Of a stretch of 34,845 nt of DNA, positions 2,103 through 34,291 are shown piece after piece. This stretch comes from a virus: positions 1 to 34,845 of IMG/VR virus record IMGVR_UViG_3300033146_004147; one strand, 5' to 3'. Position 1 is the first letter of the stretch. Every line of letters begins with the position of its first letter. Below the pieces are notes generated by a model. The model worked only from the letters and a program-made list of their open reading frames with translations. It had not been told where the DNA came from and made no database searches. A program made the translations under genes and the position numbers.

Positions 2103-5100
2103 TTAATTTAAACTTTGCTCTACAGTAGAGACAACACTATGAATAAAAGTTTTATCTATACCATCATAATTAATTCTTACTTTAATATCTCGTCCTCTTA
2201 TCTCTCTCCAACCATCATCAGTTTTCTTTAACTGAACCTGTATATACATATGATCTTCGATATAATCAGAGTTACTCCTTGTTATATTAATTTTACTAAT
2301 TTTAAGTGTAAAACCAAACAACTGATTGTATATTTCATTGCCCTTAATAGTATCAACATTAAACCAGTTTACACCATCATAATAATTAATAGTGAGTAAT
2401 GGCATCATTATTCCTTCATCTGTTAACATACTTGTTATAGCTACTATCTGATATTGTGTACCATTAATAGCAAAAGTATCATTAATATCTACATGATGTA
2501 CTAAATAATCATTAGTATTAAGATATATCCCAAAATCAGTATTATGAGATAATCCTATCATCTTAACTTCAAATCTTCGAGTTTTAACATCTTGAACTAA
2601 ATCTAAATCATATTCATCACGAACTCTATTCCCTGAAGAATCAAAAGTATCATTAAGATCTCTTTTAATATCTACATCATAAGAAATAGTTACAGGAATA
2701 CGTTCATTAGTTATAAGCATTAAATTCTCTAAAACCTTTTGAAATTGCTGTTCCTGATTAATAACAAACTCAAAACTAAAATTATGCTGTTCATCATAGA
2801 AGAAACAGAAATTAACATTATCTGAATCATGTACATGAATCCTATTTTGATTCTCTACAAGATTCATAGAATAAGTCTTATCTTCTAAAGAAAAAACAAA
2901 ATTAGGATTAAAAGATATTGGTGATACCCACTTAGCTATCCTCTCATTATAATATATACTCGATTGATAATATATAGTTATAGGAGATTTAGATGTAGGT
3001 ATCGGCTCACAATCAATAAATGTAATATTAATAACCTCATCATCAAGACTATTATTCACTTCTTCATTTTCTCTGTCACAACCGAAACCCTGATATGTAA
3101 CATCACAAATATCAATGTATTCCTCGTTATCGTTATTAGGTACAATATCTACATTTTTAATATCACAAGCAGTAATAATATCTTTAACATCCTCATAAAT
3201 ATAAAAAGTAAATATTATATCTCCTGTTAATATATCATAATTAGCCTTTACGTTATAATTAATATATCTATCTCCATTTTCATAAACATCTCTGTAATAT
3301 TCTAATTTAGATTTAAATTCACGTAAAAATGTTTCAACTTTAAATGAAGAAATATCTGTAGGAACAGAACTACCATGAATATTCATTATAGCAAGATTAT
3401 TATGGTCATAGAAATATATACCGGTCTTTGTTTCTTTACAACTATCAGGATGTATTGTACCATTACTCTCAGATAATATAGTAAGTTCTTTACCAAGTAT
3501 ATTTACATTCTCTATATAAACACCACCATCAGCATCAGAAACCTGAGTCTTTTCTCCTAAAGGAATATAAGCTACACCATTCTCAAATATAGCAAACACA
3601 TTATTATTAAAAGATATTATCTTAGATATATAACCGTATTTAGTATCATAATCCTTGTAATTTAAACCAAACAACTCTCTGTAACCATTTTTCAATTCAC
3701 CTTTTACTGCTACATCAGTTATCTCTACTCTTGTATAAAAAGCACGTAAAAGTTTCTCTGCATCTTTAAAAGATGAATTTGAAAGGATACCTTTAAAATA
3801 AGAATAACCTTTATTATAACCTTTGGATTCTATTTGACTACTTCCAAAAACAGAAGGTATATAAGAGTCAATTTTGTTCGAAGAAGAAAGGAATGTCCTA
3901 TCTTTTTGATATTTTGTTTTTTCTTGTGGCGATTTGTATTCTGTAGAACGTAATGCAAGATTATAATTAGACTCATGAATAAGTTCTATCCATAAACCTT
4001 TCTTTATTATTCTTGCACGTTTTATCGCCATAAATTCATTATCTTCAATCCAACTATTAGCTGCAGGATCTTCTTTATTAAACTCTTTATCCTCAAAATC
4101 AGTAGAACCAACACCAGCAGTATATTTCCATATATCAGCATAAGAGTCAAAACTTTGAGAATCATTATTAGACAAGATATTATAATAAGATTTTGAAAGG
4201 AAGCAATCACCACCAAAAAGCAAAAGGTCTTGATCAATAACAATATCTGTAGGTACAGTATAATTACTATCGTTAGGTACTCTTAAATTTCTTTTACTTA
4301 AAGAAGCTCCAGGATTATATACTTCTCCATCATATAAGTTTATAGTTTCTGTTATTGGATAATACGCTCCTTCATTATAGTTACTACTATACAACACTTG
4401 CCAATCGGAATTTTTAATAACGCCATTCTCTTTACGATAAACTCTTGTTAAAAATCCATAAGGTTTATTATTTTGAGAATAATTAGAACTAACAATATGA
4501 GACACTCTGCCTATACCATCATCTATGTCTTCTGTTATACCAATAAAAGATATAGTGTTAAAATTAATATTTGTTTGATCAAGTTTACAGGCAAAACTAT
4601 TAGGAGCTCCCACATCTACACCTTCAGAAACATATATTGATTCTGTATTTAATGATATAACATTGTCTTGACTTAATTCAATATTAGATGAACCAAATAT
4701 CTTAACGAAAGCACCATTAGAACTATCTGTAATATCAAACGAATCATTAATATTTATAGTATTAGGAAAACTAAATTCATTAGCAAGTTTATTTACCATA
4801 TAAAATTTATTCTTACCTTGAAAATCAGCAGCATAATGTTCAGCATCAACAATAAGATCTCCTGAAATAAAACCAAATCTATTTTTTATATCATTCTGTT
4901 TAATTAAAAGATTCCTGATAGAGACTCCATTATCTTTCCCTGCACCTTCAATATCTACATAACCTAAAACATCAAGAGACGTAAATGTTCCACCATTAGG
5001 AACATATTTTTGTATCAAACCGAATGGTGCTATATGATATTTAACTAACTGTTTATTTGTTCCTCCAGGAGATATTAATTCAAGAGATTGAATACCTGAA

Positions 5101-11263: not shown

Positions 11264-11278
11264 TATTAATAATACTAA
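11264..11278 (-). promoter_or_regulatory. Leader motif A (TTAGTATTATTAATA), before ring gene
   Basis: One of five copies of TTAGTA(A/T)TATTAATA. It lies 13 bases before the ATG of the 234-residue gene. Confidence 0.5.
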
Positions 11279-14693: not shown

Positions 14694-16109
14694 TTATATT
14701 ACATTTTGTTTAAAGATATGAGATCTATAAGGATTGAATAAGCCAATTCCTGAATAACCTGCAATATGAAATTCTGTTCCAGTAAGACCTGTAGCGATAA
14801 TACCTGATGTTTTACCATCTTTGTTACCTAAACCAGGAACTATACCTGTTAACATCTCTGATCCTTCTAAAGTGAAAGATTGTACAGCAGGACGACCATT
14901 AGCATCAGGAGCCATATCTAACATGATACCATAACCATAATTAGGATGTTCTTGAGTTAACGCTAAATCAATCATAAACACCATCTTATTTCCTTGATAT
15001 TCGAAAGAAGCAAAAGTAGCTCCAATATCAACTTTACCTTCAGATTCAGAATACAAGAAAGTATTACCTGTAGTTCTTGCTACAGTATAATCCATTAATG
15101 CATCACCTACTTGATTGTAAAGTTCTTTATTACAAATAACAACAAAAGTATTTCCTTCTACATCATCAGATTTTTCTGTCATTGTATCTAAAGCTGTCTT
15201 GATAACCCCTACATCCATTACTGAATATAAAGAACGTGAAGCATAAGCTTCTGATTGAGGAATAAGACCTGCTCCAATAGGAACATCTTGTCCGTTTTCA
15301 TCCTGGTCTAAACAAACGCCATGAACATCAAAGTTCGTTATAGCCCATAATTGAGAATTATCACGAGACTGTAAAAACTCATCTAAGATAACTTTCTCAC
15401 CATTAATAAAACCATAATAAACTTTCTTACGTCTACCTTCGTCACCTTCTACTGACTCTAAATACTTCTTACTTGTTGCAGCAGCTTGCTGAGAAATAGA
15501 CTTAGAATGTCTGTGTAAAGAAATATAATTACGATGTAACTCAGTATCCATAACAAACTTACTATAACCTCTCTCTGATAATTCAGGATAGTAGTTAGAA
15601 CGATAGATAGTCTCTTTTCCCATGCTGACGTAATTAAGATCAACTTGTAAAGCAAGATCATTATTTACTAAAACAACTCTATAAGACCACTTATTAGCAG
15701 TAATACGTACTGGAGTTGCCACAACTCTACATTGTGTTTTATTATCTAAAGCAAACGTATCGTTTACATTATAATACTTCTCTGCAAGAAACATTGTGAA
15801 TATCTCACGATTATCACCTAATCCTGCACTAATATCAGCATCTTGTACAATACGAATTTTCTTAATGTAGTTCTTATCCAAACGCCATTGAAAAGCCATT
15901 TTGTTTATTGGGTTATACTTATCAACCTTAGATGACTTTGCATAAACATTACCTAATGCTTCTGTTATTGCAGAAGTAACAAGTTTCTTGTTCATTGTTG
16001 TGTAAAGTCCAAGGTTCTTAACATCCTTTCCGAAAAATTCTGAAAGATGTTGCTCGGTTACAGTGTTTCCGTTATTCTGTAACATTGTATGTTCATCAAC
16101 TATTCTCAT
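14694..16109 (-). CDS. Major capsid protein (HK97 fold, crAss-like)
   Basis: Encodes 471 residues, close to the usual size for a crAss-like major capsid protein. It starts with a helical N-arm (MRIVDEHTMLQNNGNTVTEQ) and continues with segments typical of the family: VDKYNPINKMAFQWRLDKNY, IKKIRIVQDADISAG and, late, FEYQGNKMVFMIDLALTQEH plus GIMLDMAPDANGRPAVQSF, which correspond to the A-domain/P-domain strands. It ends with HIAGYSGIGLFNPYRSHIF, a typical closing segment. It follows the scaffold-like gene and is followed by an intrinsic terminator with a 9-T run, consistent with very high expression. A leader motif TTAGTAATATTAATA lies at 16126-16140, 16 bases before the ATG. Family recognition is by pattern and gene order. 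Confidence 0.88.
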   Translation of the reverse strand: MRIVDEHTMLQNNGNTVTEQHLSEFFGKDVKNLGLYTTMNKKLVTSAITEALGNVYAKSSKVDKYNPINKMAFQWRLDKNYIKKIRIVQDADISAGLGDNREIFTMFLAEKYYNVNDTFALDNKTQCRVVATPVRITANKWSYRVVLVNNDLALQVDLNYVSMGKETIYRSNYYPELSERGYSKFVMDTELHRNYISLHRHSKSISQQAAATSKKYLESVEGDEGRRKKVYYGFINGEKVILDEFLQSRDNSQLWAITNFDVHGVCLDQDENGQDVPIGAGLIPQSEAYASRSLYSVMDVGVIKTALDTMTEKSDDVEGNTFVVICNKELYNQVGDALMDYTVARTTGNTFLYSESEGKVDIGATFASFEYQGNKMVFMIDLALTQEHPNYGYGIMLDMAPDANGRPAVQSFTLEGSEMLTGIVPGLGNKDGKTSGIIATGLTGTEFHIAGYSGIGLFNPYRSHIFKQNVI

Positions 16110-16125
16110 AATATTCTAATTTATG

Positions 16126-16140
16126 TATTAATATTACTAA
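16126..16140 (-). promoter_or_regulatory. Leader motif A (TTAGTAATATTAATA), before MCP
   Basis: Lies 16 bases before the MCP ATG and 11 bases after the scaffold stop. It could be a promoter, an RNA processing site or a translation signal. Confidence 0.5.
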
Positions 16141-20036: not shown

Positions 20037-20051
20037 TATTAATAATACTAA
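20037..20051 (-). promoter_or_regulatory. Leader motif A (TTAGTATTATTAATA), before head fibre
   Basis: Lies 15 bases before the head-fibre ATG, inside an 86-base intergenic gap that holds nothing else I can recognise. Confidence 0.5.
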
Positions 20052-21141: not shown

Positions 21142-21156
21142 TATTAATATTACTAA
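21142..21156 (-). promoter_or_regulatory. Leader motif A (TTAGTAATATTAATA), before the 343-residue gene
   Basis: Fills almost the entire gap between the stop of the 463-residue gene and the ATG of the 343-residue gene. Confidence 0.5.
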
Positions 21157-24854: not shown

Positions 24855-25475
24855 TTAAGGTCTGTATTCAAATTTTATATACATAGGTTTAATAATTCTA
24901 TATTGTCCTACTCCTTTTAGTTCATCAATACTAAGACCTACATCTTTAGGGTAATAAATAACATCCCCTTCTTTATATCCTGCTTTCTTAGCATCTTTAC
25001 TTAACCTTACAATTTTTCCTTTACTTAAATCTCTCTCGGTTCCATAATTAACATCTGCATCATCAGGAATATATACTCCTTTTGATTCTAATTCTTTTTT
25101 CTCTTCAGTCTCATCAACTAAAATTCTATCACCAAGAGTCATTACACTTTCTACTTTCATACCTGACATTTTTGAATAAACACTTACATTATCTTCATCT
25201 ACTAATTTATATGTATTCTTTTCATCTTTTGTAAGAACAATATAATCTGCAGCCATGCTATATAACACATAGTCACCTTTTTTAATCTGAGTAACATCAG
25301 GCCCAATAGCAATAACTTTTCCAAAATAATTCAAAGGATTATTCGGATCATGTTTAAAATCATTTTTGTTAGGCATAAAAACACCTCTTTCTTTAGAATT
25401 AGGAATTTTCATTAACTTAACAAGCACCATACTCTGTTTAGGTACAATACTTTTTACATCTACTTTATTTACCAT
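24855..25475 (-). CDS. Tandem GroES-like co-chaperonin (two Cpn10 domains)
   Basis: Encodes 206 residues, about twice a normal GroES (~97). Domain 1 (residues ~8-101) has LVKLMKIPNSKERGVFMPN, FGKVIAIGPDV and IKKGDYVLY. Domain 2 (~109-201) has TLGDRILVDETEE, SKGVYIPDDAD, SKGKIVRLS and YKEGDVIYY, ending YRIIKPMYI. Each shows the Cpn10 order: first strand, mobile loop with a hydrophobic tripeptide (VFM and VYI, where E. coli has IVL), G-x-V-x-x-x-G strand, then K-x-G-D-x-V-x-Y. Tandem Cpn10 proteins are known in chloroplasts (Cpn20); phage co-chaperonins such as T4 gp31 are single-domain. The gene lies between small membrane genes and portal in the virion operon, and a GroEL gene lies 3 kb away, so it likely serves capsid folding. 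It carries both leader motifs upstream. The name groES is by similarity only. Confidence 0.88.
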   Translation of the reverse strand: MVNKVDVKSIVPKQSMVLVKLMKIPNSKERGVFMPNKNDFKHDPNNPLNYFGKVIAIGPDVTQIKKGDYVLYSMAADYIVLTKDEKNTYKLVDEDNVSVYSKMSGMKVESVMTLGDRILVDETEEKKELESKGVYIPDDADVNYGTERDLSKGKIVRLSKDAKKAGYKEGDVIYYPKDVGLSIDELKGVGQYRIIKPMYIKFEYRP

Positions 25476-25494: not shown

Positions 25495-25509
25495 TATTAA
25501 TATTACTAA
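25495..25509 (-). promoter_or_regulatory. Leader motif A (TTAGTAATATTAATA), before double GroES
   Basis: Lies 19 bases before the GroES ATG and directly upstream of a motif B copy, the only gene with both. Confidence 0.5.
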
Positions 25510-26245: not shown

Positions 26246-28327
26246 TTAAAATAATTCGTCTTTCATTACATCAAGTAACTCATCATCAAATCGTGGCTTA
26301 CCTGTTTCATCAATCCATGTTATATCACTCATATAAGTATATTTTTGTACAGTAGTTTTATTATCCTGCTTCTCTCCAAACTTCTTTTCTCCATCAGTAT
26401 TCCTTGAAAAACTAAAAGCATCTTTAGTCATACCTGTAGAAGCATATTCTCTTTCAACTTTAGCTCCTATACCAATATAATCTTCATCAGCAAGTTCACA
26501 TAACCCCATAGCAATAACAAGGTCATAAGGTGTTCTATCTTCCCTATGATAATCTCTTAACTGTTCTAATAATGGCAATATAAATATTTGTTGAGAATAA
26601 TCATTTACATAATCAATAATCTTTGCATCTTGATGATCTATCATATCTGCAGTAGCAGGAGTACCAATAAGGGTACTTTTTTTATCTCCATCAATATTCC
26701 CTAAAGCTATAGTTGGACGTTTCATAAAATAACGAGACATATGTTTTTCTCTAAAATAAGATAAAATATTAAACTTGGTATACTCTAAATTTATCTTACA
26801 TCTATAATATAATGTCATCATCAATACATTTTCGTAATCATCACGTACTTCTGGATGACGTTCATTATACCAACAAACATAAATACTTCTTGTAGATTTA
26901 TTATCACCAGTAATAATACGTTTCTTGACAAGAGCAGCTAATTTAGATCCTTCATCAGTAGTACTATCATTACCACCCATATCTATACTATCAAGTCCCA
27001 TAACGTATAAATCCTCATAATATTTCCCTTCAGGACTCTTTTGTACTTCCTCTATCATAAATATTGGACCAATACCATTATTTATAAACTCAACACCTGT
27101 AATTACATTATCATCAGTTTTAGTATATTGGAAATAACCTTTTTTAACCTTCATAGAAACCTCAACAGTATCAACTATAGATATTTGTTGTGCAATTTTA
27201 TCCTGATTAAATCTATTCGTTCCTTTCTTTAAAAATACTTCTCTTGTATTTTGAGGATATTCTTGGCAATAATTTTGTAAAGATACAAATTCACCTGCAT
27301 CTTTAAGTTTTTGTCTTTCTTTGTTATTTATTTTAAGAGCCTTCTCTATATCAGGAACACCATTCTTTTCCCATGTACCTGCTAATTTATATTGTACCGG
27401 AATAAACAAAGCAGTTTTCATTCCATCCCATTCGTTTATAGCAAGAAAATTATAAGCATCAGGTTTATGGAAAATCTCTTTCGCATGATCGTTAGATATA
27501 GAACCTCCTGTACCCATAAGCATCATAAAGTTCTTCATAATAGTACCACCAATAAGATTTGATCCTCTTGATTGTGCTAACACATCTTTTAAGTTACCTA
27601 ACCCTGTAGACGGAAACGCTCCGAACTCTTCAACAAGCTGAATATTAGGTCGTCTTGAACGTGTCTTTCCTGGAGACTTACCATAAAGAATTTTTTCGTA
27701 AGTACATAAATAACCTCTTTCTTCTTTTCCATAATCAGTATCAACTTCTTCACCACTTTTTAATTTAGTGTTCGAATTAGTTATCCTTTTTTGTTTTAAC
27801 GCTGGATGCTTCTTTTCAAAAGCTCCTAATGTTTCTATAACTTTATCCCATGCAGTATCAACATGAGTTTTCATACTCGCAGAAACAATTATATCACTTT
27901 TAGGAAAAAAATTATATCTCCTATTCATTATAGATGTAGCGATATAGGATTTGCCCAACCCTCTAGAGCCCAATAAAGCTATATGTTGAGAGCTATTCAT
28001 AGCTTCCCACATCTTATCAAATATATATTCATCTATACGTGAGAAAAGAGGCATTCCTGGTTCATCATAAGACTGAACTTCTCCAGTTTTTCTATCTATA
28101 TACTGAACAGGAAAATAATAAAAATTAAGGAAATGATATATTAACGGATTCCAAAACTTACCATTAATAGTTATACCATTCAGAACATAATCAATCTGTT
28201 CTTCATACCATTCTCTAACCAACGGAGAATACATTGGTGCATCAATAATATCTCTACCTGATAATAATTTTGAAGGAACTTCTATTGGTTCAAGATAATC
28301 ATTTATAGTTAAAATCTTTCTGCCCAT
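26246..28327 (-). CDS. terL: Terminase large subunit (packaging ATPase/nuclease)
   Basis: Encodes 693 residues. The ATPase domain has a Walker A loop GSRGLGKS (residues 120-127) after the strand HIALL. Walker B is IQLVEEFG (229-236), with the catalytic Glu after the hydrophobic strand, followed by a coupling segment MLMGTGGS near 270-276. The C-terminal nuclease shows the RNase H-like first strand with acidic residues YVMGLDSIDMGG (D446, D449), and a late acidic strand TPYDLVIAMGLCELADED (D602). It packages DNA into the prohead through the portal. It is the first gene of the minus-strand virion operon, with a TATATTTG box at 28347-28354 and a leader TAATGTTAATGTAG directly before the ATG. It diverges from groEL. 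No small subunit is recognised with confidence. Confidence 0.92.
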   Translation of the reverse strand: MGRKILTINDYLEPIEVPSKLLSGRDIIDAPMYSPLVREWYEEQIDYVLNGITINGKFWNPLIYHFLNFYYFPVQYIDRKTGEVQSYDEPGMPLFSRIDEYIFDKMWEAMNSSQHIALLGSRGLGKSYIATSIMNRRYNFFPKSDIIVSASMKTHVDTAWDKVIETLGAFEKKHPALKQKRITNSNTKLKSGEEVDTDYGKEERGYLCTYEKILYGKSPGKTRSRRPNIQLVEEFGAFPSTGLGNLKDVLAQSRGSNLIGGTIMKNFMMLMGTGGSISNDHAKEIFHKPDAYNFLAINEWDGMKTALFIPVQYKLAGTWEKNGVPDIEKALKINNKERQKLKDAGEFVSLQNYCQEYPQNTREVFLKKGTNRFNQDKIAQQISIVDTVEVSMKVKKGYFQYTKTDDNVITGVEFINNGIGPIFMIEEVQKSPEGKYYEDLYVMGLDSIDMGGNDSTTDEGSKLAALVKKRIITGDNKSTRSIYVCWYNERHPEVRDDYENVLMMTLYYRCKINLEYTKFNILSYFREKHMSRYFMKRPTIALGNIDGDKKSTLIGTPATADMIDHQDAKIIDYVNDYSQQIFILPLLEQLRDYHREDRTPYDLVIAMGLCELADEDYIGIGAKVEREYASTGMTKDAFSFSRNTDGEKKFGEKQDNKTTVQKYTYMSDITWIDETGKPRFDDELLDVMKDELF

Positions 28328-28409: not shown

Positions 28410-29981
<1,572 letters not shown>

Positions 29982-30866: not shown

Positions 30867-31164
30867 GTATCTCTATCCATATATAATTAAGACCTATAAA
30901 AAGTAATATATTAAAAGAAAATTCAAAGGTTATTAAATAGAAGAATATAGCTATATAAACACTAAAGCAATAAATACATAACCCTACAGGTTTAAGAAAA
31001 AACCTTTTCCAACGATCCTTCTTTCTCCACCAATGTATCCAATGATATATTAGTCTTAGATAATACCTTCGAAAAATCATTCCTGGCTCCATACATTTTA
31101 CTATGAACAATGATAGCGATGCCGTCATTAGGGAGTATAATACGTACAGAACAGCCTCTTCCAT
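30841..31164 (-). CDS. Small membrane protein with a KP-x-G-x-C-x-x-C motif
   Basis: Encodes 107 residues. A hydrophobic N-terminal helix (LYVLYSLMTASLSLFIVKCM) is followed by EPGMIFRRYYLRLI, a basic Trp-rich loop, then FLKPVGLCIYCFSVYIAIFF and a second and third membrane segment ending GLNYIWIEILKKLLPNK. The order 'PGMIF ... KPxGxCxxC ... GLNYI' recurs in small membrane proteins of Bacteroidetes phages as I remember them; their function is unknown to me. The CxxC pair could bind metal or form a disulphide. I chose the ATG at 31164 because a TATTTTTG box at 31194-31201 would give a 5' leader of about 20-25 bases, like other genes here. The last codons overlap the groEL-operon terminator hairpin on the other strand. 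Confidence 0.6.
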   Translation of the reverse strand: MEEAVLYVLYSLMTASLSLFIVKCMEPGMIFRRYYLRLIYHWIHWWRKKDRWKRFFLKPVGLCIYCFSVYIAIFFYLITFEFSFNILLFIGLNYIWIEILKKLLPNK

Positions 31165-31193
31165 TACAAGAATTTTTAATTATTTTCATAACA

Positions 31194-31201
31194 CAAAAAT
31201 A
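31194..31201 (-). promoter_or_regulatory. TATTTTTG promoter-like box for the 107-residue membrane protein
   Basis: Matches TAnnTTTG on the minus strand, 29 bases before the chosen ATG at 31164 and downstream of tRNA-Ser. It helps decide the start. Confidence 0.4.
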
Positions 31202-31239
31202 AAATTCACTATTAATTAAAACAATGACTTTTATCATAG

Positions 31240-31323
31240 CGGAAGAAATAGGTCACGATCCCAATACCTTTCGGTACAATCAGTTTAGCAAACTGTTCTC
31301 CGGCCAACCAGAGTTTATCTTCC
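31240..31323 (-). tRNA. tRNA-Ser(GCU)
   Basis: An 84-base cloverleaf with acceptor GGAAGAT/TTCTTCC (six pairs plus a T-T at position 7) and discriminator G73, which is characteristic of serine tRNAs. The anticodon loop is TTGCTAA (anticodon GCT) on a short stem, and a long variable arm TACC-GAAA-GGTA marks a class II tRNA. The T loop reads ATCGTGA, so the usual T54-A58 pair appears as A54-T58. The D arm is CTC...GAG. CCA is not encoded. Confidence 0.72.
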
Positions 31324-31365
31324 TTTAGCGGTAAAGAAGGGAATCCAAACCCCAATAAGCCAAAG

Positions 31366-31439
31366 TCTAACTGGTACGACTCGAACGTACAATAACCCTC
31401 ATTCCAAGTGAGGTAACCACACCAATGGATCGCAGCTAG
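31366..31439 (-). tRNA. tRNA-Pro(UGG)
   Basis: A 74-base cloverleaf: acceptor CTAGCTG/CAGTTAG with one G-U, anticodon stem CCTCA/TGAGG with loop CTTGGAA (anticodon TGG), T stem GTACG/CGTAC with a canonical TTCGAGT loop, and discriminator A. The D stem is weak (ATCC/GGTT with a T-T mismatch) and position 8 is C rather than T. CCA is not encoded. It lies 20 bases after the terminator of the upstream mini-ORF. Confidence 0.75.
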
Positions 31440-31458
31440 ATATATTAAAAAAGAACAT

Positions 31459-31492
31459 AAAAAAAGCCTCTCCAAATTAATGAAGAAGCTTT
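31459..31492 (-). terminator. Intrinsic terminator after the mini-ORF, before tRNA-Pro
   Basis: Stem AAGCTTCTTC / GGAGAGGCTT (10 pairs with two G-U), loop ATTAATTT, then seven T on the minus strand. The loop is the same eight bases as in the MCP terminator. Confidence 0.75.
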
Positions 31493-31517
31493 ATAGGTTA
31501 GTTTATATTATTATAAT

Positions 31518-31592
31518 TTACCCTACGACAGATCCTCCATTCTTCATGTGAAGCGGTTGACGATCATTCGTATGTAAATTATTTATTCTCAT
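31518..31592 (-). CDS. Candidate mini-gene of 24 residues between tRNA-Met and a terminator
   Basis: An ATG 14 bases after the tRNA-Met 3' end opens a 24-codon frame: MRINNLHTNDRQPLHM then KNGGSVVG and a TAA stop. An intrinsic terminator begins 25 bases further on. A frame this short can arise by chance. The composition, however, is unlike the AT-rich background (CGT, CAA, CCG, CAC, GGA, GGG codons). The stretch has no other evident content: I could not fold it into a tRNA. Placement between a tRNA and a terminator suggests it is co-transcribed with tRNA-Met. The function is unknown. Confidence 0.4.
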   Translation of the reverse strand: MRINNLHTNDRQPLHMKNGGSVVG

Positions 31593-31605
31593 AATTAAAT
31601 TTTTG

Positions 31606-31677
31606 TAGCGAGAGACAGACTCGAACTGCCGACCTGATGGTTATGAGCCACCCGAAATACCACTTTTCCATCTCGCA
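31606..31677 (-). tRNA. tRNA-Met(CAU), initiator-like
   Basis: A 72-base cloverleaf: acceptor GCGAGA/TCTCGC with an unpaired T1-T72, D stem GAAA/TTTC (A11-T24), anticodon stem GGTGG/CCATC with loop CTCATAA, variable loop AGGTC, T stem GGCAG/CTGTC with loop TTCGAGT, discriminator A. The missing 1-72 pair, the A11-U24 pair and the AGGTC variable loop match bacterial initiator tRNA. Of the three G-C pairs normally at 29-31, the first is T-A here. CCA is not encoded. Confidence 0.8.
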
Positions 31678-31706
31678 CTGCAATATTACAAAAAATATTT
31701 TAATAT

Positions 31707-31714
31707 CAAAAATA
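31707..31714 (-). promoter_or_regulatory. TATTTTTG promoter-like box for tRNA-Met / mini-ORF
   Basis: Matches TAnnTTTG on the minus strand, directly after the stop of the 159-residue gene and 29 bases before the tRNA-Met 5' end. A near-copy with one extra T lies at 31689-31697. Confidence 0.4.
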
Positions 31715-31715
31715 T

Positions 31716-32195
31716 TTAACTAAATTTCTCTAACTTAAATTTTATATCTTTTTTTGCATAACTTTTTATACCATACAAAGGACGTAAAATTACACCATAA
31801 TCTGATACTGGTATATATGTTACTCTAAACGAACTAACAATTTCCGAACCTTCTAATTTTGCCTCAAATTCTACTCCATAAGATTTTTCTATTATAGATA
31901 AAAATACAGGTTCCTTTTTTGTGTTATATATACGCATATTATGAAGCTTTAATTTACTATTAATAACATACTGAGCATATACTTCACCATTAAGATCATT
32001 ATATACAAAAGAAAAACTATTCTTACGAGAACTAAAACCAATAGAAAAACCAAATAATCTATTCATATGATTTTCCCATCCTAATGTTTCTATATTATGT
32101 GTAAACTTATATTTTAAATTTAAACCTTTAATTTTTATAATCTTTGGCAAATGAAACTTATCTTTACATTTACCTTTCTTTATTATCACTTCCAT
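31716..32195 (-). CDS. Soluble paralogue of the 222-residue membrane protein, unknown function
   Basis: Encodes 159 residues with no membrane segment. A basic N-terminus (MEVIIKKGKCKDKFHLPK) is followed by HMNRLFGFSIGF, KNSFSFVYN, DLNGEVYAQYVINSK and, near the end, VILRPLYGIKSYAKKDIKF. The same landmarks in the same order occur in the C-terminal ~140 residues of the protein at 1424-2092, so I infer one family, probably a beta-sandwich ending in a 'PY/LYGG...AP' strand. It starts 5 bases after the 696-residue gene, with the leader TAATGTAG directly before its ATG, and is followed by the tRNA segment. Two diverged copies at the two ends of the virion block suggest different partners or compartments. 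No function can be assigned. Confidence 0.65.
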   Translation of the reverse strand: MEVIIKKGKCKDKFHLPKIIKIKGLNLKYKFTHNIETLGWENHMNRLFGFSIGFSSRKNSFSFVYNDLNGEVYAQYVINSKLKLHNMRIYNTKKEPVFLSIIEKSYGVEFEAKLEGSEIVSSFRVTYIPVSDYGVILRPLYGIKSYAKKDIKFKLEKFS

Positions 32196-32210
32196 CTACA
32201 TTACCATTTA
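32196..32210 (-). promoter_or_regulatory. Leader motif B variant (TAAATGGTAATGTAG), 159-residue gene
   Basis: Abuts the ATG but overlaps the last codons and stop of the 696-residue gene, so part of the match may be coincidence. Confidence 0.3.
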
Positions 32211-34291
32211 TTTGTTTTTAAATATTTACGCATAGCATTATAAGAGTCGTATATATCCTTCTGAGAAAATATCTCGTTTTTTATATCCTTCCAATATCTT
32301 GCTTTTTTAAAATCTTCTTCAGATCCTTCAAACATTAAATTACGTATCACTCCATCAATATAATTTTCTTTAAAATGTTCGTATCCATCATTAACAGAAT
32401 GTTTTTTACTCTCATTTTTCCAGTCTCTTTCAATATCACCCTTATAAGGGCTATCCATATATGCTTTAGAAAACCTATCATATAGCATTTTATATTTAGG
32501 ATCACTCTTCATTCCATGAGATACAACATCTAAAAATATAGCTTGATTAATTTCTCCTGGACCATCAAAAGCATCAGGATTATACACTATAGTCTTTTCT
32601 CCTTTAAAAGGATTATTATAACTATAATCATCACTATATGTTACCTTATCTCTATCCATAAATTCTATATCGCCAAAACCATACTCTTTAGCTCTATACT
32701 CTTTATCAGGATAAATATTTATTTTCCCTGCATTTATTAATGCTGGATAATCCTCGTAAAAATCAGAAATATTTTCTTTTTTTCTCTCAACCTCACTTAA
32801 ACCACCCTTTTGTTTTGCTTTCACTTTATTTGCTCCGTATAATGTTGCTACTCCTGTTGCCATATATGGTGTTTTATTTAAAATATTTAAAAACTTACGA
32901 GTATCCGTTATGTAAGGTTTGTATATATTGTATATTTTAGAACCCTTAATATCAGCTTGCTTTAAAATACTAGGCGTTATCTTATCATGTACGGCATTAA
33001 TTAATCCTAAATCAACAAGCTCATCTTTTAAATTCGTTCCTGCATAAGACATAAATTCTGTAGGTGATGTAAAATATTCGAAATCACTAAGATTGTTTAT
33101 CTTATCAATACCTTTACTTATTCCATTATCTTTAAAGACACTACTTAATTCATTTCTATACTCTCTACTTATATAAGCTCCTGCTGAATTTATATTGTGT
33201 TTTAACTCATGATTAATAAGCCTACTTAAACTCTTATGCCCTTTTACTGCACTTTTACTGTTAATTAAAACCTCACGTTTAATTGGATCTATCCCATTAC
33301 TTAAATACTCTTGCTGTAAAAACATTATCCAATCATTAAAATCTTTATCTCCAGTATATATGTCAATTAATTTAGCTTTAACAGCATCTTCATTAATAAT
33401 ATTCTTCTCTTGTAAATACTTTAATACATATTTATGATTTAAATCATCTAAAGAAATATCATACCTACTTAATCCTCCCATTTTTAAATCATCAAAAACA
33501 ATCTTATCTCTTATTTTTAAATATTCAGGAGAATTATAATCATTATTTTCAATCCATTTACTAACAGATTTAACATTTAATCCATTTGTAGTTTCTGCAT
33601 CAAGTCTAGCATATTTTTTTAGATTATCAGGATGAGACATTTTATCGAAATAATCCTTACGACTAAATTCTGATAGTTTATTTATTAATTTCTTAGCTTC
33701 TTCTTTATTTTTTCTAACATTTCTCTCAGCCTCTTCTTTTGTAATATTTATCGCAGGATTATCCTTTAATATTTTCCTTCCTTCAAATAGATCAACCTTT
33801 TTATTACTCTTTAAAGCTTTCATTATACCTTCAATATCTTTCTCTGTAGGTTCTCTATCAACTAACATAGCAACTTTTCTTACTTTACCTAATTTACCTA
33901 AAGCAAACTCAGGAGCGAAAGCTAATAACGCCTCTCCTGTTATTGTTTCGGTCTTATCTATAACACTTTTATCATCCCACTCTTTACGCATACCTAACTG
34001 TTTACGCATTATAATTTCTAATTGTTTTCTATCCTTGTAATTTACAGTAGAAAAACTACTGTTTTGTACTGACTTCCATTTCTTATCAACCTCTTTCTGA
34101 AACTTATCTTCTTTAATCTTGTCTTTTCTTTTGCGTGATACAGCTTCTCCTTTAGTTTCGGGATGATACTTATAACTATTAGCAATAGAAGTGTTATCTG
34201 TTTTAATTGTTAAATCAGGTAATAATGATTTAAATTTACCTTTTTGTGCAGCTTTTATTAATAAGCCTTTACGTGATAATGTATTTAACAT
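32201..34291 (-). CDS. Large probable virion cargo protein with a zinc-metalloprotease (HExxH) motif
   Basis: Encodes 696 residues. Residues ~1-110 are very basic (KYHPETKGEAVSRKRKDKIK). A helical region covers ~150-330. At 361-365 the motif HELKH lies in SRLINHELKHNINSAGAY, and E412 in FTSPTEFMSYAG could be the third zinc ligand of a gluzincin-type protease, in the manner of metallopeptidase domains of polyvalent phage proteins. A short hydrophobic segment follows near 476-486. Residues ~505-696 form a separate domain (YNPDAFDGPGEINQAIFLDV, HSVNDGYEHFKENYIDGVIR) of a type I associate with phage ejected or internal proteins. It lies upstream of the tRNA cluster and shares no promoter box with terL. 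Ejection into the host with the DNA is inferred; protease activity needs the motif to be intact, which it is. Confidence 0.62.
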   Translation of the reverse strand: MLNTLSRKGLLIKAAQKGKFKSLLPDLTIKTDNTSIANSYKYHPETKGEAVSRKRKDKIKEDKFQKEVDKKWKSVQNSSFSTVNYKDRKQLEIIMRKQLGMRKEWDDKSVIDKTETITGEALLAFAPEFALGKLGKVRKVAMLVDREPTEKDIEGIMKALKSNKKVDLFEGRKILKDNPAINITKEEAERNVRKNKEEAKKLINKLSEFSRKDYFDKMSHPDNLKKYARLDAETTNGLNVKSVSKWIENNDYNSPEYLKIRDKIVFDDLKMGGLSRYDISLDDLNHKYVLKYLQEKNIINEDAVKAKLIDIYTGDKDFNDWIMFLQQEYLSNGIDPIKREVLINSKSAVKGHKSLSRLINHELKHNINSAGAYISREYRNELSSVFKDNGISKGIDKINNLSDFEYFTSPTEFMSYAGTNLKDELVDLGLINAVHDKITPSILKQADIKGSKIYNIYKPYITDTRKFLNILNKTPYMATGVATLYGANKVKAKQKGGLSEVERKKENISDFYEDYPALINAGKINIYPDKEYRAKEYGFGDIEFMDRDKVTYSDDYSYNNPFKGEKTIVYNPDAFDGPGEINQAIFLDVVSHGMKSDPKYKMLYDRFSKAYMDSPYKGDIERDWKNESKKHSVNDGYEHFKENYIDGVIRNLMFEGSEEDFKKARYWKDIKNEIFSQKDIYDSYNAMRKYLKTNKW

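What the first reader, a model, noticed from the sequence alone, without database searches (positions are those of the whole stretch)
31606..31677. Phage-encoded initiator-like tRNA-Met
The mismatch at 1-72, the A11-U24 pair and the AGGTC variable loop are hallmarks of bacterial initiator tRNA, while one of the three anticodon-stem G-C pairs is replaced by T-A. A phage that supplies its own initiator tRNA could bias translation starts, which is notable beside the unusual leader motifs.
Basis: partly seen in the sequence, partly recalled or inferred. Interest (0 to 1): 0.55.

Follow-up and report, generated by a model that had tools for sequence, protein, structure and literature searches.

The report
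Initiator tRNA gene in a crAss-like phage
This bacterial virus carries its own copy of the special tRNA that starts bacterial proteins; the gene is real and built like a working initiator, but many phages have one and its one odd base pair is common, so it is mostly an ordinary example.

Summary
A complete tRNA(CAU) gene lies at 31606-31677 on the minus strand. It has U1xU72, A11-U24, AGGUC, U29-A41 in place of one of the three anticodon-stem G-C pairs, and no encoded CCA. Covariance models built here score it 80.0 bits (initiator), 59.6 (elongator Met) and 51.4 (Ile2), so the proposed refutation fails.

The contig is a crAss-like phage fragment (Crassvirus-type capsid, crAss-type terminase), so the host is probably Bacteroidota. 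A near-identical sister contig has an identical initiator gene with seven more tRNAs. The window keeps only tRNA-Met, a diverged tRNA-Pro and half a tRNA-Asp.

The T-A pair is not an anomaly: the Prevotella initiators fetched have A29-U41; 27 of 45 Patescibacteria matches and 67 of 100 viral initiator-type tRNAs have A-U or U-A there. In those 100, position 1-72 is never G-C or C-G and shows 12 base combinations, although the search pattern left it free. That indicates selection for initiator use.

The likeliest role is topping up formylatable initiator tRNA during infection. That it biases start choice, or resists tRNA nucleases, is untested. New member of a known kind.

The parts
31606..31677 (-). 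phage initiator-type tRNA-Met(CAU), positions 1-73; anticodon at 31643-31645, U29 at 31650, A41 at 31638; CCA not encoded
31365..31439 (-). tRNA-Pro(UGG) of the same cluster; not listed by Rfam at its gathering score; 44 identities in a 76-column alignment with the sister's tRNA-Pro, although its flank towards tRNA-Met is nearly identical
31323..31364 (.). junction of a deletion of about 1.3 kb relative to the sister contig (L010 positions 2229 to 3564), with a remnant of the 5' half of tRNA-Asp at about 31331-31361; the sister has Asp, Gln, Thr, His, Arg and Asn tRNAs here
   Evidence: that it is a loss in the window and not a gain in the sister is inferred from the half Asp gene
31463..31492 (-). 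terminator-like hairpin followed by a T run, between tRNA-Met and tRNA-Pro
   Evidence: consensus scan: 2 found in 31150-32300 against 0.4 expected; the other lies inside tRNA-Pro
31716..32195 (-). 159-aa ORF that ends 38 nt before the tRNA; no PHROG or Pfam match at E 0.001
26246..28327 (-). terminase large subunit, crAss-type; places the contig
14694..16109 (-). major capsid protein, Pfam PF23898 Crass_capsid; places the contig

Best explanation
The gene encodes a working initiator tRNA (tRNA-fMet class) of a crAss-like phage that probably infects a Bacteroidota host. Shown from sequence: it carries what MetRS and Met-tRNA formyltransferase are known to read (CAU, A73, unpaired 1-72, G2-C71, C3-G70, G4-C69, R11-Y24) and two of the three G-C pairs that matter in the ribosomal P site. 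Inferred: during infection the transcript is processed, host enzymes add CCA, methionine and formyl, and the initiation factors load it into the P site, enlarging the initiator pool. The U29-A41 pair is a tolerated variant of the 3GC motif, not a defect. The tRNA belongs to a phage tRNA array, most of which this phage has lost.
For: Class: initiator 80.0, elongator Met 59.6, Ile2 51.4 bits; positional profiles 47.6, 25.2, -5.1. Control: the elongator-type CAU tRNA of phage L023 at 2165-2238 scores 33.9, 79.8, 79.8 with the same models. Selection: of 100 viral A11-U24 CAU tRNAs found by a pattern that leaves 1 and 72 free (94 distinct), 0 have G-C/C-G there and 81 (76 of 94 distinct) form no standard pair, in 12 base combinations; of 12 Y11-R24 CAU tRNAs in the same loci 8 have G-C/C-G. 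With the other phage loci, some of them fetched by BLAST with this tRNA or being the sister, it is 0 of 120 against 13 of 23. 29-41 variant tolerated: the Prevotella initiators fetched are A29-U41, one of them the only initiator-type match on a 1.77 Mb replicon; 27 of 45 Patescibacteria matches are A-U or U-A. The tRNA is identical in the sister contig. Formylation and methionine determinants: passages of PMC9976931 and PMC7949028.
Against: No expression, charging or formylation data. The tRNA is diverged: its margin over elongator Met (22.4 bits in the positional profile) is smaller than for any reference initiator (minimum 31.2), and without the ten diagnostic positions the margin is 4 bits. 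With Patescibacteria left out, 15 references give 34.6 against 30.0. Four of the 25 sequences in the initiator model share the window's anticodon arm, which helps its score. Host phylum is inferred from the phage's relatives only. Retention while neighbours were lost is one deletion and could be chance.
Confidence: 0.75

Rival explanations
1. The phage initiator replaces a host initiator cut by anticodon nucleases of the VapC kind; its changed anticodon stem makes it a poor substrate.
For: VapC homologues cut tRNAs between anticodon stem and loop, and one was shown to cut tRNA-fMet (PMC8522696, abstract and passages); phage tRNAs often carry loop mutations thought to escape anticodon nucleases (PMC10264068, one section and passages). 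The stem here differs from E. coli and Prevotella initiators at 27-43, 28-42 and 29-41. LoVEphage, a Bacteroides phage, has an initiator-like tRNA with a changed loop, AUCAUAG.
Against: The window's loop is CUCAUAA, identical to the E. coli and Prevotella initiators, so there is no loop change of the reported kind. Cellular initiators vary the same stem pairs. PMC10264068 reports that phages facing VapC-LT2 generally avoid encoding tRNA-fMet.
Confidence: 0.15
2. It steers initiation towards phage mRNAs, for example by tolerating SD-less leaders or other start contexts.
For: 0 of 24 gene starts have an SD-like motif; U29-A41 and G28.U42 could alter P-site scrutiny.
Against: Bacteroidia ribosomes fail to recognise SD sequences anyway (PMC9976891, abstract start and passages), so the host needs no such help; the same 29-41 variants occur in cellular initiators. 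Nothing found here links tRNA and leaders.
Confidence: 0.07
3. It is an elongator Met or an Ile2 (lysidine, AUA-reading) tRNA with a chance resemblance.
For: CAU is shared by all three; the phage uses AUA heavily (415 AUA, 237 AUG codons in 24 ORFs), so an Ile2 tRNA would be useful. Without diagnostic positions the elongator score is close (34.7 against 38.7).
Against: The three models and the diagnostic positions favour the initiator; Ile2 comes last with covariance models and with the full positional profile.
Confidence: 0.03
4. A passenger left after the array was lost, without use.
For: The rest of the array is deleted and tRNA-Pro has diverged.
Against: No mispaired stem position except 1-72; identical to the sister's copy; 1-72 kept weak across phages.
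Confidence: 0.05

Closest known systems
Bacterial initiator tRNA-fMet (E. coli metZWV/metY; Prevotella)
   Same: CAU, open 1-72, G2-C71, C3-G70, A11-U24, G26, G30-C40, G31-C39, CUCAUAA loop, A73; 49-52 of 72 positions identical to the initiators compared
   Different: U1xU72 instead of C1xA72; U29-A41 instead of G29-C41 (E. coli) or A29-U41 (Prevotella); G28.U42; A-U rich D stem; no CCA encoded (the Prevotella genes also lack it)
Phage initiator-type tRNAs (Lak-B1, huge phages LR745206 and LR756504, Crassvirales cr125_1, cr114_1 and Bohxovirus; 11 IMG/VR contigs with the same anticodon-arm 21-mer, the sister among them)
   Same: open or weak 1-72, A11-U24, G30-C40/G31-C39 in the six named; LR745206 has the same anticodon stem and U1xU72
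   Different: Lak-B1 keeps the full 3GC motif; LR756504 and Bohxovirus are A29-U41; cr125_1 and cr114_1 have U1-A72 and a shorter variable region (read by eye from the sequences); three of the 11 contigs have C11-G24 and a fourth has U1-A72
tRNA-fMet of phiLM21-like prophages of Sinorhizobium meliloti (PMC12429752, passages)
   Same: a phage-borne gene called tRNA-fMet(CAU) by tRNAscan-SE
   Different: temperate alphaproteobacterial phages; phiLM21's own tRNA-Met (L031) has A11-U24 and U29-A41 but encodes CCA
Initiator-type tRNAs of four MAG contigs, L014-L017 (three titled Patescibacteria or Kerfeldbacteria, one 'bacterium')
   Same: 24-base anticodon arm identical; one initiator-type match per MAG, MAGs possibly incomplete
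   Different: C1xA72, different T and D stems; probably convergence in three variable pairs

Membership tests
Bacterial initiator tRNA (tRNA-fMet) | CAU anticodon in a complete cloverleaf | tested here: met
Bacterial initiator tRNA (tRNA-fMet) | unpaired or weak 1-72 | tested here: met
   U1xU72
Bacterial initiator tRNA (tRNA-fMet) | R11-Y24 (A11-U24) | tested here: met
Bacterial initiator tRNA (tRNA-fMet) | minor formylation determinants G2-C71, C3-G70, G4-C69, A73 | tested here: met
   determinants from a passage of PMC9976931
Bacterial initiator tRNA (tRNA-fMet) | three consecutive G-C pairs 29-41, 30-40, 31-39 | tested here: inconclusive
   two of three; 29-41 is U-A. Cellular initiators fetched here also vary at 29-41, so the strict E. 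coli form does not define the class in these groups
Bacterial initiator tRNA (tRNA-fMet) | best model score among CAU classes | tested here: met
   80.0 / 59.6 / 51.4 bits
Bacterial initiator tRNA (tRNA-fMet) | formylated in vivo and used at start codons | not testable with these tools
   needs experiment
Elongator tRNA-Met | paired 1-72 and Y11-R24, as in the references | tested here: not met
   U1xU72, A11-U24
tRNA-Ile2 (lysidine) | G1-C72 and C11-G24, as in the references | tested here: not met
   lysidine itself cannot be seen in DNA
Crassvirales (the phage) | crAss-type major capsid and terminase | tested here: met
   PF23898, 48.2 bits against cut-off 27; terminase similar in 110 records, at most 27.0% identity in the 40 rows listed; order or family placement was not tested by a tree

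The most novel reading that the evidence does not exclude
Many phages carry a dedicated initiator tRNA kept under selection for a weak 1-72 but free at 29-41, and use it to hold or retune translation initiation while the host's tRNA-fMet is depleted or cut; in some crAss-like phages it sits upstream of terL.
Probability: 0.2. Interest if true: 0.6.

Novelty: new member of a known kind. Interest (0 to 1): 0.33.

Why it matters
A phage-borne initiator tRNA is a direct handle on who controls the start of translation in an infected cell. The survey gives two testable points: phage initiator-type tRNAs keep 1-72 weak through varied bases, and neither they nor the Patescibacteria and Prevotella sequences fetched here keep the full 3GC motif that a review calls highly conserved in all domains (PMC7949028, passage). 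A crAss-like phage of a group without Shine-Dalgarno use would be a good place to test what such a tRNA does.

Tried and rejected
Elongator Met and Ile2 identity were tested and rejected. The T-A pair as a sign of special P-site use was rejected, because it is common in cellular initiators. Loop mutation for nuclease escape was rejected for this tRNA (loop unchanged). Patescibacteria as host, raised by the identical 24-mer arm, was set aside: three variable stem pairs can coincide, and capsid and terminase point to crAss-like phages. Searches for further relatives in viral contigs found one sister by terminase and none by capsid. Megablast of 14.8 kb against phage records found nothing.

Limits of counts. 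One search parsed 129 CAU tRNAs from those loci and counted the 100 with A11-U24 and G30-C40/G31-C39; 29 were left out. Six of the 100 are exact repeats. Some contigs may carry host flank, so not all need be phage genes; the 30 from loci with three or more tRNAs look the same (21 of 30 lack G29-C41). One search took 167 viral CAU tRNAs, of which 161 parsed: 120 A11-U24, 23 Y11-R24, 18 other; the 120 include the sister and loci fetched by BLAST with this tRNA. One search found 45 matches in 44 of 96 Patescibacteria genomes, so 52 genomes have no initiator of that strict pattern and are not in the tally. One search used a fixed T-arm length and misreads positions 66-73 of L021, L022, L026 and L028. 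Two phage initiator-type tRNAs score level or slightly better with the elongator model (L012 76.8 against 80.0, L023 79.4 against 79.3). Classes of Patescibacteria, Prevotella and Acetoanaerobium references were set by me from pattern and stem, only E. coli's by annotation; 41 entries were labelled 'x' and left out. In one search, 25 of 36 initiator references were aligned, 17 of 18, 9 of 10. The 24 ORFs used for leaders and codons are my choice out of 35 listed; the 11 dropped overlap others or start with TTG/GTG, so 'all ATG' is partly by choice. MT835839 (L028), a terminase relative, has a tRNA-Met with U11-A24, so not every crAss-like tRNA-Met is initiator-type.

Full report
What is there. 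The window is a whole IMG/VR record of 34,845 bases, classed so that it is probably a fragment. ARAGORN finds tRNA-Met(cat) at 31605-31677 and tRNA-Pro(tgg) at 31365-31439, both on the minus strand. Rfam confirms the first at 31606-31677 with 55.2 bits; the second is not listed at Rfam's threshold. The tRNA-Met folds as a clean cloverleaf with 1-72 open.

Which CAU tRNA. I collected bacterial references: E. coli K-12 initiator, elongator Met and Ile(CAU) genes as annotated, Prevotella sp. oral taxon 299 and P. nigrescens, Acetoanaerobium, Nonomuraea and Cetobacterium, and Patescibacteria genomes. Identity to the window tRNA is 49-52 of 72 for the initiators compared, 42-47 for elongator Met and 36-42 for Ile2. 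Three covariance models on one common structure score it 80.0, 59.6 and 51.4 bits. Positional profiles agree, 47.6, 25.2 and -5.1, with 63 of 64 labelled references correct on leave-one-out. The weak point is told by the same call: without the ten diagnostic positions the lead over elongator Met is 4 bits, so the verdict rests on the functional positions. Those are the ones that matter: open 1-72, G2-C71, C3-G70, G4-C69, A73 and R11-Y24 are the formyltransferase determinants named in passages of PMC9976931 and PMC7949028.

The replaced G-C pair. PMC7949028 calls the 3GC motif highly conserved in all domains (passage). In the sequences fetched here it is not: the Prevotella initiators are A29-U41, and 45 matches from 44 of 96 Patescibacteria genomes split 17 G-C, 16 A-U, 11 U-A and one mismatch (the pattern fixed 30-31 and 39-40). 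Among 100 viral initiator-type tRNAs, 46 are A-U, 32 G-C, 21 U-A and one mismatched. So U29-A41 is ordinary. The same anticodon-arm 21-mer occurs in 11 IMG/VR contigs, one of them the sister, and the 24-mer in four MAG contigs, three titled Patescibacteria or Kerfeldbacteria and one only 'bacterium'.

Evidence for use. The pattern leaves positions 1 and 72 free. Yet of the 100 viral A11-U24 tRNAs it found (94 distinct), none has G-C or C-G there and 81 form no standard pair, in 12 base combinations; of 12 Y11-R24 CAU tRNAs in the same loci 8 have G-C or C-G. Adding the other phage loci, which were partly chosen by similarity to this tRNA, gives 0 of 120 against 13 of 23. Changing bases with the weakness kept is what selection for initiator function would leave. 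Relatedness among the sequences was not corrected for beyond removing exact repeats.

The phage. The capsid matches PF23898 Crass_capsid and the terminase matches 110 phage records, at most 27% identical in the 40 listed, largely 'cr' crAss-type genomes and phages of Bacteroides and Flavobacterium. A groEL gene and a groES-like gene are present. None of the 24 ORFs that I took as genes (of 35 listed) has an SD-like motif before its start, which fits Bacteroidota ribosomes (PMC9976891, abstract start and passages). Sister contig IMGVR_UViG_3300005264_000340 is 95-99% identical over the aligned stretches and has eight tRNAs in the part held; the window lacks about 1.3 kb with most of Asp to Asn, keeps an identical tRNA-Met and has a different tRNA-Pro. 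In cr125_1 and cr114_1 an initiator-like tRNA lies 90-150 nt upstream of terL (initiator model 67.0 and 62.4 bits against 43.0 and 41.2 for elongator Met). Here and in L009, whose terminase is a distant relative, the tRNA lies about 3 kb upstream of terL. This is not general: in Bohxovirus terL and tRNA-Met are some 16 kb apart.

How it most likely works. It adds formylatable initiator tRNA during infection. Charging, formylation and P-site use are inferred, not shown. Nuclease escape and start-site bias remain possible and untested.

Novelty. Phage genes called tRNA-fMet are in print (phiLM21-like prophages, PMC12429752, passages). Another paper says phages facing VapC-LT2 generally avoid encoding tRNA-fMet (PMC10264068, one section and passages), and Shigella phage Sf14 is said to have none (PMC12482277, passages). 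The huge-phage paper reports many tRNAs, initiation factors and ribosomal proteins; the term fMet does not occur in its main text (PMC7162821, term search and passages). Ten paper searches listed no study of phage initiator tRNAs as a class; several listings showed only the top rows, and the library covers open-licence papers only.

Noticed in passing
31365-31439 (-) and L002 5563-5637: tRNA-Pro differs between the two sister contigs (44 identities in 76 columns) while the flank towards tRNA-Met is nearly identical; the window's copy still folds as a cloverleaf with the UGG anticodon. A recombination tract covering Pro and part of Asp is likely.
   Followed up: partly
11264-11278, 16126-16140, 20037-20051, 21142-21156, 25495-25509 (-): Five exact copies of TTAGTAWTATTAATA, 3-20 nt before the start codons of five ORFs, among them the capsid and groES-like genes (7 matches with one mismatch allowed, 0.26 expected): perhaps a promoter or leader element.
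   Followed up: partly
28410-29981 (+) and 24855-25475 (-): groEL-like and groES-like genes in a crAss-like phage.
   Followed up: no
31518-31592 (-): 24-codon ORF (MRINNLHTNDRQPLHMKNGGSVVG) between tRNA-Met and the terminator-like hairpin; one base differs in the sister contig.
   Followed up: no
L004 4494, L007 247, L013 3031: Viral-contig CAU tRNAs with C1xA72 and the same anticodon arm but C11-G24 and a TGCAATT T loop (G at position 55): odd mixtures of initiator and elongator features.
   Followed up: no
L256 700-773: LoVEphage (Bacteroides phage) initiator-like tRNA-Met with a changed anticodon loop AUCAUAG, about 350 nt from terL.
   Followed up: no
G001-G099 loci, e.g. L181-L210: Patescibacteria initiators often lack G29-C41 (27 of 45 matches A-U or U-A), a relaxation of the 3GC motif in cellular genomes.
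   Followed up: partly
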